A stretch of DNA of 43,948 bases from Burkholderiaceae bacterium. GTDB taxonomy: Bacteria; Pseudomonadota; Gammaproteobacteria; Burkholderiales; Burkholderiaceae_C. The notes beneath the pieces are model-generated. The model was not told where the DNA came from. It searched no databases and saw only the letters and a list, made by a program, of their open reading frames with translations. Location: NCBI GenBank assembly GCA_016790515.1, contig JAEUOY010000039.1:1-43948 (forward strand), written 5' to 3'. The position numbers and the translations under genes were made by a program. Positions 36,606-39,747 of the stretch are shown here, piece by piece. The stretch's first letter is position 1. Each line of letters begins with the position of its first letter.

Positions 36606-37721
36606 ATGCGAGTCGCCGCTGTTGCACGCCCCTCGACGAAGCACGGCCGGCCGCGTGCCGCCACCGCGCTGCTCGCCGCGCTGCTGCTGGCCGGTTGTGC
36701 CGGCTCGCCGCTGATCCCGTTCACGACCGACTCGCCGCCGCTGGTGCTGGTGCCGGCGGCGCAGGCCGGCGTGATCGACCAGCGCGGCCGCTTCCGCGAG
36801 ATCTACTGCGCGGTGCTGCTGGCGCGCGCCGGCGAGGTGCCCGATCACCGCCCCTGCGACGATGCGCTGACGCGGCTGGGCACCGAGCCTGCCGGCAACG
36901 GCCGGCCGGTACCGCTGGGCGCGTCGAGCCGGCGCCTGATCGCCGCGGTGGTGCCCGGCATCGGCTACGACTGCTTCGCGCAATGGCTGCAGCCCGCCGG
37001 CATGGCCGCGCGCCATGTCGAGCGCTTCGGCTACGAGATGCGGCCGGTCCAGGTCGACGCGCTGTCGGGCACGGCGAAGAACGCGCGCCAGATCCGCGAC
37101 GCGGTGATGGCGATGGATGCCGGAGCGGGCGCACCGCGCATCGTGCTGGTCGGCTATTCGAAGGGCGCGCCCGACGCGCTCGAGGCGATCGTCGGCTACC
37201 CGGAGATCCGCCCGCGCATCGCCGCGGTGGTCAGCGTGGCCGGGGCGGTGGGCGGCTCGCCGTTGGCCAACGATGCCGAGCAGTACCAGGCCGAACTGCT
37301 GCAGCATTTCCCGGGCGCGACCTGCGACGCCGGCGACGGCGGCGGCGTGGCCAGCCTGCGCCCCGGCGTGCGCAAGGCCTGGCTGGCGCAGAACCCGCTG
37401 CCGCCGGAGGTGCCTTACTACTCGGTCGTGACGCTGCCGCAGCCCGAGCGCATCTCGCGGGTGCTGGGCGGCAGTGCGCGCAAGCTCGGCCGGATCGACG
37501 GCCGCAACGACAGCCAGGTGATCTTCTACGACCAGGTCATCCCGGGCTCGACGCTGGCCGGCTACGTCAACGCCGACCACTGGGCGATCGTGGTGCCGAT
37601 CGCCCGCAGCCATGACACCGTCGCGTCGCTATTCGTCGACCAGAACGCCTACCCGCGCGAGGCCCTGCTCGAAGCGGTGCTGCGCTTCGTCGAGGAAGAC
37701 CTCGCGGCGCGCGGCAGGTAA
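36606..37721 (+). CDS. Lipoprotein with alpha/beta-hydrolase nucleophile motif
   Basis: A 371-residue protein of unknown function. The N-terminal lipoprotein signal is ATALLAALLLAGC with acylated Cys31. A lipase-like nucleophile elbow is VLVGYSKGAPDAL with Ser185 (GxSxG). Candidate partners are Asp309 in IFYDQVIPG and His325 in VNADHWAIVVP, so a serine hydrolase triad is plausible. The segment RLIAAVVPGIGYDCFAQWLQ before it resembles the first strand and oxyanion loop. It is tethered to the inner or outer membrane facing the periplasm. The downstream phospholipase-C-like gene starts 37 bases after its stop, so they are likely one operon, suggesting linked action on lipids. The substrate is not known. 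Confidence 0.75.
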   Translation: MRVAAVARPSTKHGRPRAATALLAALLLAGCAGSPLIPFTTDSPPLVLVPAAQAGVIDQRGRFREIYCAVLLARAGEVPDHRPCDDALTRLGTEPAGNGRPVPLGASSRRLIAAVVPGIGYDCFAQWLQPAGMAARHVERFGYEMRPVQVDALSGTAKNARQIRDAVMAMDAGAGAPRIVLVGYSKGAPDALEAIVGYPEIRPRIAAVVSVAGAVGGSPLANDAEQYQAELLQHFPGATCDAGDGGGVASLRPGVRKAWLAQNPLPPEVPYYSVVTLPQPERISRVLGGSARKLGRIDGRNDSQVIFYDQVIPGSTLAGYVNADHWAIVVPIARSHDTVASLFVDQNAYPREALLEAVLRFVEEDLAARGR

Positions 37722-37758: not shown

Positions 37759-39747
37759 ATGCCCTGCATTCGATCGGCGGCCCTGGCCGCAGTTCTGGCC
37801 TGCCTGGCCGCGGCCGGGCCCGCCCGGGCCTGGGTCTATCCCGAGCACCGCGACATCGCGGTGCTCGGCGTCCAGACACTCGATGCCGAACGCAAGGCGC
37901 GGTTCGAGCGCCTCTGGCACGAGGCCCGCGCCGGCCAGGAGCGGCGCCTGTGCGAGCAGGCCGCCGACGCCAGGCAGGGCGTGGCACCCGAGTGCATCGA
38001 CTGGGCGGCGTTCAGCGCGATCGCCGGCGACCACTCCTGCTCGAGCAGGAACATGCTCGACAACGTGCTGAAGACCGACTGGATCCTGCAGGTGGCCGAC
38101 GTGTCGGCGCAGCTGAAGCTGGACCTGGGGCGCATCGCGGTCACCGCGCGGCCGGAGCTGAACCTCAAGGACCGGAACCTGGTCGCCGACCTGCAGCGGG
38201 TGGTCGAGGACGAAGGCCTGCGCGCCGAACGCCAGAACGCGCTGCGCACCGCCGACATCCGCTTGCAGCGTGCCGATGTCGAGTACGCGACCCGCGCCGG
38301 CGCGAACAACGCGCATTTCCTGCTGCCGCGGCCGCGCACCGACACCACGCCGAAGGACTACGCCGAGCTGACCCTGACGCCGGGCTCGGAGATCAGCGCG
38401 ATCGGCGTCTACAGCTGGTTCCACCTCAGCGCGCTGCAGAAGGCCACCCGGCTGGCCAACGAGACGCTGGCGCCGGCCGAGCGCCAGGCGCTGGCGCTGG
38501 CGATGCTGGCCGACGAAGGTTTTGCGCTGCATTTCCTGCAGGACACCTTTGCCTCGGGGCATGTCGCCGGGGCCTGGGGCGACGTGTCGCAGCGCAAGGG
38601 CACGCACGACTTCTACAACGAGGCCGGGCTCGAGGCCTTCAGCTGGAAGGGCAGCAGCGACTCGATGGTGCTGATGGGCGACGCCCACATGCGCGCCGAG
38701 GACGCCGAGCGCGCTGCGCGCGTGGTGCGGGCCAGCCTGGAGCAGCTGGTCGACCACGCCACCGGGCGTGCCGGGGCCGGCCGCATTCCCCACACCCGCG
38801 CGGCAGCGGCCGAGCCCGACGCGCTCGACGTCTGCAAGACCAACACGCTGCAGCGGCGCGACGAAGCGCTGCGTGCGACGCCCGAGGCCTGGGTGCAGAT
38901 TCCCGAGGTGCTGTTGCAGACACCGGTGCCGGGTCTGGGCCCGGGGCTGGGCGCGATGCCGCGCTTCCGTGCCGAGGTCGGGCCGTTCATCGGCTTTGCC
39001 GGCGCGGCCGACACGCGCTTCGTCGGCGGCGGCTGGGTGCCGTCGGTCACTGCCAACGGCGCGGTGCTCGGCGCCGAGCTGTCGCTGCGCGCCGGCCTGG
39101 GGCTGGACGGCGTGATCAACGAATCGGGTGACGGCCTGGTGTTCGGCTCGATCGGCCTGCGCGGCGATTCGAAGTCGACCAACGACCAGCCGTTCTCGTC
39201 GCCCGCGCTGAGCGCCGCCGGCGGGGTGTCGGCGATCCGCTCGCGCTTCGGCATCACGACGCGGCTGCGCATGCCGTTCTACCTGATCCCGGGCGACCTG
39301 CTGTTCGCGGCGCCGGCCTACTTCTTCTCGCCCCAGACCTACACGACGATGGCCGTCACCGCCAGCAACGGTGGGCTGATTCCGTGGCAGTCGGGCTGGG
39401 CGACCCCGATCGGGCGCTTCCAGTTCGTGCTCGGGCGCGAGCTCGGCGCCACCTTCTACGGCTACGGCTTCGAGAACACCACCGTCGTGCCGCCCGCGGC
39501 GCTGGGCGGCGAGCCGCGGGTGGTCGACTTCAGGTCGATCAACTTCGACCTGCCGATCCTCGAATACCGGCCGTACCGCGCCTTCGACACCCAGCAGAGC
39601 TCGGCGGTGCTGGTCCAGCTGTTCGCCGCCGCCGACCTGCCCAAGGCGACCACGGTGACCTGGCCGCCGGGTGCGCCGGGGGTCAGGCTCGAGACCATCT
39701 ACTCGATCGGCCTGCGGCTGGTCTTCGACTGGCGCCGCTACTTCTGA
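37759..39747 (+). CDS. Secreted zinc-phospholipase-C/P1-nuclease-like protein with C-terminal barrel-like region
   Basis: A 662-residue exported protein. The signal peptide ends PARA at residue 24, leaving Trp25 as residue 1 and His30 as residue 6 of the mature protein. In P1 nuclease Trp1 and His6 are zinc ligands, and Trp1 is also one in zinc-dependent phospholipase C. Further candidate ligands are Asp91/His92 (GDHS), His186 or His222, then His258, Asp262 and His268 with H-x3-D-x5-H spacing, the spacing of P1 His116/Asp120/His126 and PLC His118/Asp122/His128. His283 with Glu288 or Asn287 follows. From about residue 400 the sequence changes to Gly/aromatic-rich strand-like segments ending FDWRRYF, like an outer-membrane barrel. 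I infer a surface-anchored metallo-phospholipase or nuclease. It follows the hydrolase lipoprotein by 37 bases. Confidence 0.75.
   Translation: MPCIRSAALAAVLACLAAAGPARAWVYPEHRDIAVLGVQTLDAERKARFERLWHEARAGQERRLCEQAADARQGVAPECIDWAAFSAIAGDHSCSSRNMLDNVLKTDWILQVADVSAQLKLDLGRIAVTARPELNLKDRNLVADLQRVVEDEGLRAERQNALRTADIRLQRADVEYATRAGANNAHFLLPRPRTDTTPKDYAELTLTPGSEISAIGVYSWFHLSALQKATRLANETLAPAERQALALAMLADEGFALHFLQDTFASGHVAGAWGDVSQRKGTHDFYNEAGLEAFSWKGSSDSMVLMGDAHMRAEDAERAARVVRASLEQLVDHATGRAGAGRIPHTRAAAAEPDALDVCKTNTLQRRDEALRATPEAWVQIPEVLLQTPVPGLGPGLGAMPRFRAEVGPFIGFAGAADTRFVGGGWVPSVTANGAVLGAELSLRAGLGLDGVINESGDGLVFGSIGLRGDSKSTNDQPFSSPALSAAGGVSAIRSRFGITTRLRMPFYLIPGDLLFAAPAYFFSPQTYTTMAVTASNGGLIPWQSGWATPIGRFQFVLGRELGATFYGYGFENTTVVPPAALGGEPRVVDFRSINFDLPILEYRPYRAFDTQQSSAVLVQLFAAADLPKATTVTWPPGAPGVRLETIYSIGLRLVFDWRRYF

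What the first reader, a model, noticed from the sequence alone, without database searches (positions are those of the whole stretch)
37759..39747. Zinc phospholipase C/P1-nuclease-type domain joined to an outer-membrane-barrel-like C-terminus
Seen: signal cleavage after PARA would leave Trp as residue 1 and His as residue 6. A later H-x3-D-x5-H (residues 258, 262, 268) matches the zinc-ligand spacing of P1 nuclease and zinc-dependent phospholipase C. Known: in those enzymes the free amino group of Trp1 binds zinc, so exact cleavage is needed. Inferred: the last 260 residues, Gly/aromatic-rich and ending in YF, form a barrel that would hold the enzyme on the cell surface or thread it outward. 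I know of no well-described enzyme with this architecture.
Basis: partly seen in the sequence, partly recalled or inferred. Interest (0 to 1): 0.78.

Follow-up and report, generated by a model that had tools for sequence, protein, structure and literature searches.

The report
Outer-membrane-anchored zinc phospholipase-like enzyme
This gene encodes a secreted zinc-enzyme-like domain joined to what looks like an outer-membrane anchor, an unnamed protein family whose gene often sits beside other fat-cutting enzyme genes and that may help bacteria turn over membrane lipids.

Summary
The ORF 37759-39747 encodes 662 aa; an A-x-A signal end is followed by Trp25 (mature residue 1), His30 (residue 6) and H258-x3-D262-x5-H268. 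It is not a lone oddity: 19 loci encode relatives; 17 run through both halves, two are cut by contig ends. No Pfam model matches 20 members. An alignment of ten members with six far relatives has 17 invariant columns, nine of them His or Asp, enough for a trinuclear zinc site. Kinship to S1/P1 nucleases rests on the register of the first 32 residues (p 0.0006 with W1 and H6 left out); profile comparison is not significant, and the H-x3-D/E zinc pair is not kept (N287). The C-terminal half has beta-type periodicity, but a barrel is inferred: structure prediction failed and was then switched off. Neighbours in 11 of 22 loci, a hydrolase lipoprotein or a phospholipase-D-family gene, point to phospholipids. 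I favour a periplasm-facing, outer-membrane-anchored phospholipase C-type enzyme, working like PlpD with an unrelated catalytic domain, over surface display. New variant of a known kind.

The parts
37759..39747 (+). whole gene, 662 aa plus stop
   Evidence: translation; 19 loci with a relative in genome contigs
37759..37830 (+). signal peptide, residues 1-24, ending A-R-A
   Evidence: Ala or Gly at -1 in 19 of 19 aligned sequences
37831..38865 (+). predicted zinc phosphodiesterase domain, residues 25-369
   Evidence: A4 invariant columns; N-terminal 32 aa in register with S1/P1 nucleases
37831..37848 (+). Trp25 to His30: mature residues 1-6 (W-x-Y-P-E-H), free amino terminus plus His as predicted zinc ligands
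38029..38031 (+). Asp91, predicted metal ligand
   Evidence: invariant in 16 of 16 of A4
38314..38316 (+). His186, predicted metal ligand (HF motif)
   Evidence: invariant in 16 of 16 of A4
38530..38562 (+). H258-x3-D262-x5-H268 motif
   Evidence: invariant in 16 of 16 of A4; the far relatives were found partly through this stretch
38605..38610 (+). His283-Asp284, predicted metal ligands; Asn287 stands where S1/P1 and PLC have Asp/Glu (recalled)
38680..38682 (+). Asp308 of the GD motif, predicted ligand or structural residue
   Evidence: invariant in 16 of 16 of A4
38038..38835 (+). span from invariant Cys94 to invariant Cys359 (inferred disulfide)
   Evidence: 19 of 19
38950..39744 (+). C-terminal half, residues 398-662, inferred outer-membrane beta-barrel
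   Evidence: periodicity scans, mixed result; no Pfam match
36606..37721 (+). P0002: alpha/beta-hydrolase-like lipoprotein (LAGC lipobox and G-Y-S-K-G read by eye), 37 bases upstream on the same strand
   Evidence: weak Abhydrolase_2/Cutinase matches below cut-off; single match in the genome as held; relative of it in 7 of 22 family loci

Best explanation
A cell-envelope phospholipid hydrolase. The precursor crosses the inner membrane by Sec; signal peptidase cuts just before Trp25, and the freed amino group together with His30 and a set of His/Asp residues binds two or three metal ions, probably zinc, as in the S1/P1 nuclease/phospholipase C fold. The C-terminal half folds into a small outer-membrane beta-barrel that anchors the enzyme with its catalytic domain on the periplasmic side, next to the inner leaflet of the outer membrane. 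There it would hydrolyse glycerophospholipids to diacylglycerol and a phosphorylated head group, with the co-located hydrolase lipoprotein and, in relatives, a phospholipase-D-family lipoprotein acting on the same or product lipids. Shown: W1/H6 arrangement after a signal-like N-terminus, ligand conservation, co-conservation of both halves, gene neighbourhood. Inferred: metal binding, fold, barrel, side of the membrane, substrate.
For: Conserved cleavage site right before an aromatic residue (also, by eye, in the four far relatives with signal peptides). Nine His/Asp among 17 invariant columns in 16 diverged sequences. First 32 residues of 20 members match 12 S1/P1 sequences at z 3.5, p 0.0006 with W1 and H6 left out; over residues 9-26 only offset 0 of 13 offsets scores above zero. 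C-terminal half: helix-type periodicity below shuffles (z -2.5), strand-type above (z 1.9); nine alternating segments against 3.5+-1.5 in shuffles at one of four thresholds. P0002 has a single match in the genome and a relative of it lies in 7 of 22 family loci; a PLD-family gene lies in 7 of 22, either one in 11 of 22 (PLDc_2 in the 4 PLD proteins scanned). One locus also carries an MFS-acyltransferase protein next to the gene, which I read as an LplT/Aas-type lysophospholipid recycler (name recalled).
Against: No Pfam, NCBIfam or PDB sequence match beyond chance rows. Profile-profile comparison with S1/P1 nucleases is not significant (E 0.12 to 0.78). The zinc-motif surroundings alone do not match S1/P1 (p 0.10), nor do the N-termini of the four far relatives (p 0.14). 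Asn287 replaces the acidic ligand. The N-domain shows no helical periodicity (z 0.2) where S1/P1 does (z 3.4). The barrel test is not decisive: three other thresholds gave p 0.06 to 0.08, and at the two lowest the N-domain itself exceeds its shuffles (12 against 9.0+-1.9, 11 against 6.9+-1.9); single C-domains range from z 0.9 to 4.1, N-domains from -1.1 to 2.1, a porin 2.2, a PLD protein 1.7. 11 of 22 loci show neither neighbour, though some contigs are short. No substrate evidence.
Confidence: 0.5

Rival explanations
1. Surface-displayed or autotransporter-like phospholipase C: the barrel holds or exports the enzyme to the cell surface, where it cuts lipids of other organisms or detritus.
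For: Architecture passenger plus C-terminal barrel (inferred); neighbours are lipid-hydrolase families.
Against: Two invariant Cys far apart; no autotransporter model in Pfam matches 20 members; the C-terminal half looks like 8 to 10 strands by eye, a small pore; the analogue PlpD proved periplasmic (passages).
Confidence: 0.2
2. Outer-membrane-anchored nuclease or 3'-nucleotidase of the S1/P1 kind, scavenging phosphate from nucleic acids.
For: W1-x4-H6 spacing is that of S1/P1, and the first 32 residues align with S1/P1 in register.
Against: Neighbours are lipid-enzyme families; the same genome has an ordinary S1/P1 nuclease elsewhere; the GD-x-HQP-x-H pattern of the S1/P1 proteins read is absent.
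Confidence: 0.12
3. A metal-binding domain that acts on another phosphodiester or phosphomonoester of the envelope (glycolipid, teichoic-type or lipid A head group), or is non-catalytic.
For: Ligand set departs from PLC/P1 at N287; substrate unknown; no significant profile link to characterised enzymes.
Against: Nine His/Asp columns are invariant in A4, which argues for catalysis; lipid-enzyme neighbours.
Confidence: 0.18

Closest known systems
S1/P1 nuclease family (PF02265)
   Same: mature N-terminal Trp with His at residue 6; H-x3-D-x5-H; N-terminal stretch in register
   Different: no Pfam match; profile comparison not significant; long stretch between Asp91 and His186; Asn287 in place of the Asp of H-x3-D; extra C-terminal half
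Bacterial zinc phospholipase C (PF00882; B. cereus, L. monocytogenes type)
   Same: mature N-terminal Trp; in the L. monocytogenes enzyme a residue added before it turns activity off (PMC10576769, abstract and passages); H-x3-D-x5-H (recalled)
   Different: W1-H6 instead of W1-H14 (recalled); no Pfam match; outer-membrane-type C-terminus
PlcC-type metallophospholipases of P. fluorescens and Legionella (PMC2613904 section 9 and passages; PMC7025538 passages)
   Same: PlcC lacks a signal peptide, as two far relatives here do (L043, P0005; 568 and 536 aa, near the 546 aa listed for Pf-5); this likeness is a lead, not a test
   Different: no PlcC sequence was available to compare; no barrel is mentioned in the passages seen
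PlpD, patatin-like Omp85 phospholipase (PMC11116518, abstract and passages)
   Same: N-terminal phospholipase plus C-terminal barrel in one chain; envelope lipid turnover
   Different: patatin domain, POTRA and 16-strand Omp85 barrel; no Pfam model of these matched here

Membership tests
S1/P1 nuclease (PF02265) | Pfam model match | tested here: not met
   no PF02265 row for any of 20 family members at E up to 10
S1/P1 nuclease (PF02265) | mature N-terminal Trp and His at residue 6 | tested here: met
   in S1/P1, 8 of 8 listed PDB chains align from chain residue 1 to the Trp of L028, and the 3 alignments printed show W-x4-H
S1/P1 nuclease (PF02265) | H-x3-D-x5-H | tested here: met
S1/P1 nuclease (PF02265) | H-x3-D for the second zinc | tested here: not met
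   H283 is followed by D284 and by N287 (19 of 19)
S1/P1 nuclease (PF02265) | significant profile-profile similarity | tested here: not met
   E 0.12-0.78
S1/P1 nuclease (PF02265) | local register of the N-terminal stretch | tested here: met
   z 3.5, p 0.0006, against 12 S1/P1 sequences that my own pattern picked from 35 loci; the four far relatives alone gave p 0.14
S1/P1 nuclease / PLC fold | all-helical fold with trinuclear zinc site | not testable with these tools
Zn_dep_PLPC (PF00882) | Pfam model match | tested here: not met
PlcC-type metallophospholipase C | sequence similarity to P. fluorescens or Legionella PlcC | not tested
   no such sequence was held; only sizes and the absence of a signal peptide were compared
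Outer-membrane beta-barrel | alternating amphipathic strands | tested here: inconclusive
   p 0.003 at one threshold, 0.06-0.08 at three others, and the N-domain also exceeds shuffles at the two lowest; mixed; in favour
Outer-membrane beta-barrel | C-terminal aromatic residue | tested here: inconclusive
   aromatic last residue in 10 of 19 rows; L017 is truncated and L018, L019 run on
Autotransporter / PL-Omp85 | matching Pfam barrel, POTRA or patatin model | tested here: not met
   none in 20 members

The most novel reading that the evidence does not exclude
A widespread, unnamed family of outer-membrane-anchored zinc phospholipases C that, with a hydrolase lipoprotein and a phospholipase-D-family lipoprotein, forms an outer-membrane lipid turnover module, and whose enzymatic activation is coupled to export because signal peptidase itself makes the metal-binding N-terminus; the barrel has been joined to the same catalytic domain more than once.
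Probability: 0.3. Interest if true: 0.75.

Novelty: new variant of a known kind. Interest (0 to 1): 0.55.

Why it matters
How Gram-negative bacteria clear or recycle phospholipids at the outer membrane is only partly known (OMPLA, Mla, PlpD; recalled except PlpD). A family that places a zinc phospholipase C-like site on an outer-membrane anchor, found in MAGs titled Burkholderiales, Cytophagales, Melioribacteraceae, Acidobacteria and Anaeromyxobacter among others, with far relatives in Hymenobacter and Parabacteroides annotated as hypothetical proteins, would add a new enzyme class to that question and gives exact residues to test.

Tried and rejected
Single-sequence and profile searches of Pfam, NCBIfam and PDB gave only chance rows for the family and its far relatives; of the family proper only the window protein was scanned with NCBIfam. 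The PDB rows for mistletoe lectin and TIF1-beta lie away from the H-x3-D-x5-H motif and were dropped. PF00882 hits (8 of 150 genomes) were too mixed to build a PLC profile, so PLC was not compared by profile. Comparison with S1/P1 was tried with 6 sequences (three settings) and with 12; none is significant; in the default local mode the best alignment fell on the zinc motif or on the N-terminal stretch. The S1/P1 set is partial: of 35 loci (L026-L033, L056-L082) my pattern, which itself asks for a Trp with a His close behind and for H-x2-G-D-x-H-Q-P-x-H, found 14, 12 of them distinct, so W1/H6 in that set proves nothing. The H-x3-D-x5-H surroundings alone do not match S1/P1 beyond chance (p 0.10 for the family, 0.28 for far relatives). 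The C-terminal halves of the far relatives could not be aligned with this one (E 0.07 to 0.82), so one common barrel is not shown. Of two porin loci, one (L088, z -0.6) looked like an antisense frame and was not used as a control. L042 and L044 share the motif but not H283-D284 and were left out of A4; A4 holds 10 of the family's members. Literature: the listings (20 of 4,248; 12 of 41; 10 of 1,210; 12 of 33) show no title on a zinc phospholipase C joined to a barrel; that is a check of capped listings in an open-licence library only.

Full report
What is there. The frame 37759-39747 (+) encodes 662 aa plus a stop. The mechanical ORF starts further up at 37612, but the ATG at 37759 is preceded by an aagga stretch and opens a signal peptide ending GPARA.

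Relatives. One scan of genome contigs gave 19 loci that encode a relative (42 stretches matched a pattern), in MAGs titled Burkholderiales, Gallionella, Rubrivivax, Nitrospira, Gammaproteobacteria, Cytophagales, Melioribacteraceae, Acidobacteria and Anaeromyxobacter among others, 36-73% identical. L015 (residues 25-338) and L017 (13-638) are cut by contig ends; the other 17 run through both halves. Alignment A1 holds 19 sequences: the window protein and 18 of the 19 loci, L015 left out. In the phylum it matched 4 of 398, own included, the other three weakly at the motif region (in the rows shown at most three candidates per genome were scored). The family is patchy, not core.

Metal site. Two annotated plasmid-record proteins, Hymenobacter WP_270129398.1 and Parabacteroides distasonis WP_211744399.1, both called hypothetical, match at E 5e-4 and 8e-3 and, by eye, have a signal peptide followed by Tyr or Trp and then E-H. 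Two proteins of genome G058 (L025, L052) have Phe after the signal and end in W and F. L043 and a Rhizobium protein (P0005) share the motifs but show no signal peptide. hhalign of the family's N-domain against these six together gives E 6.7e-21; all six were found by their likeness to this family or to one another, mainly around the zinc motif, so conservation there is partly selection. Alignment A4 of ten family members and these six has 17 invariant columns: E29, H30, D91, A180, H186, F187, A225, A256, H258, L260, D262, G267, H268, H283, D284, G307, D308 in window numbering (which prints mature numbers, 24 lower). Nine are His or Asp. With the amino group of residue 25 this is about the number of ligands of the trinuclear P1/PLC site (ligand lists recalled; that the N-terminus binds zinc in S1 nuclease, and that a residue added before W1 turns off L. 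monocytogenes PLC, are from passages of PMC5201275 and PMC10576769). Asn287 stands at the place of the acidic residue in H-x3-D/E (recalled), so D284 or D308 would have to take that role; this is a real departure.

Kinship with S1/P1. No Pfam match was found for 20 members, and no NCBIfam or PDB match for the window protein or, for PDB, the family profile. Yet the first 32 residues of 20 family members against 12 S1/P1 proteins, W1 and H6 left out, score z 3.5 (p 0.0006), and for residues 9-26 only offset 0 of 13 offsets scores above zero. The 12 are those that my pattern picked out of 35 loci. The zinc-motif surroundings alone are not above chance (p 0.10), and the four far relatives with signal peptides give p 0.14. 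I take homology as likely, not shown.

C-terminal half. Residues 398-662 are rich in Gly (12.8%) and aromatics (13.2%) and hold no Cys. Averaged over the family, helix periodicity is depressed (z -2.5) and strand periodicity raised (z 1.9), the opposite of S1/P1 (z 3.4 and -1.0); the N-domain is neutral (0.2, -0.1). The alternation scan found nine segments against 3.5+-1.5 at threshold 1.5 (p 0.003; N-domain 5 against 4.8+-1.7), but p 0.08, 0.08 and 0.06 at the other three, and at the two lowest the N-domain also exceeds its shuffles. In single sequences seven C-domains range from z 0.9 to 4.1 and their N-domains from -1.1 to 2.1; one porin gives 2.2, a PLD protein 1.7, and the C-terminal parts of four far relatives 1.0 to 3.1. 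D-W-R near the end is kept in 16 of 19 rows, and the very last residue is aromatic in 10 of 19.

Sidedness. Cys94 and Cys359 are invariant in 19 of 19; Cys65 and Cys79 are present together in 16 and absent together in 3 (L010, L012, L013). Disulfides of an oxidising compartment fit; one closing a 265-residue loop would hinder threading through a barrel. PlpD, long thought to export its patatin domain, keeps it in the periplasm, and its loss raises phospholipid levels (PMC11116518, abstract and passages). I therefore place the domain in the periplasm, as an inference.

Neighbours. P0002 (36606-37721) ends 37 bases upstream on the same strand, with an LAGC lipobox and a G-Y-S-K-G nucleophile elbow read from the sequence; library matches are weak and below cut-off. 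It has no second match in the genome, which is 82% complete as held. In 22 family loci (window, L001-L019, L083, L084; the fragment L085 was searched too and shows neither) a P0002 relative lies in 7 (window, L001-L005, L009; in L002 about 5 kb away and cut by the contig end) and a PLD-family gene in 7 (L002, L003, L005, L007, L011, L083, L084), either in 11, in changing order and strand. L014/L016 come from one MAG, L018/L019 are near kin, and several contigs are short. The four PLD proteins scanned (from L005, L007, L011 and L023, the last being the gene of L084) match PLDc_2 well over the cut-off, and the three scanned with NCBIfam match cardiolipin synthase models under theirs; by eye those of L002, L003, L005, L007, L011 and L083 begin with lipoprotein-type signals. 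The own genome has PLD relatives at five places on other contigs. In L005 an MFS plus acyltransferase protein is encoded next to the gene, upstream on the other strand. Together this points to phospholipids rather than nucleic acids; the genome has an ordinary S1/P1 nuclease elsewhere.

Verdict. A real, conserved, unnamed family: a P1/PLC-type metal-site domain with export-coupled N-terminus, joined to a probable outer-membrane barrel, most likely a periplasm-facing phospholipid hydrolase.

Noticed in passing
L029 (G000:C152:22350-23240): The window's own genome encodes an ordinary S1/P1 nuclease (over the Pfam cut-off) with Trp after the signal, so the two enzyme types coexist.
   Followed up: partly
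L054:250-4245: In a Parabacteroides distasonis plasmid record the relative lies 18 bases downstream of a DUF5686 gene on the same strand, a possible pair.
   Followed up: no
L002:2440-7858: Between the PLD-family gene and the hydrolase gene lies a DUF748/AsmA-like protein with an OmpA-family domain; AsmA-like proteins are linked to lipid transport (recalled).
   Followed up: no
L042 and L044: Long proteins (open frames of 1040 and 735 aa) in other Pseudomonadota genomes share H-x3-D-x5-H and, in the alignment, the HF and GD motifs; no library model matches the parts read.
   Followed up: partly
L014 and L016: One Acidobacteria MAG holds two near copies of the family on different contigs.
   Followed up: no
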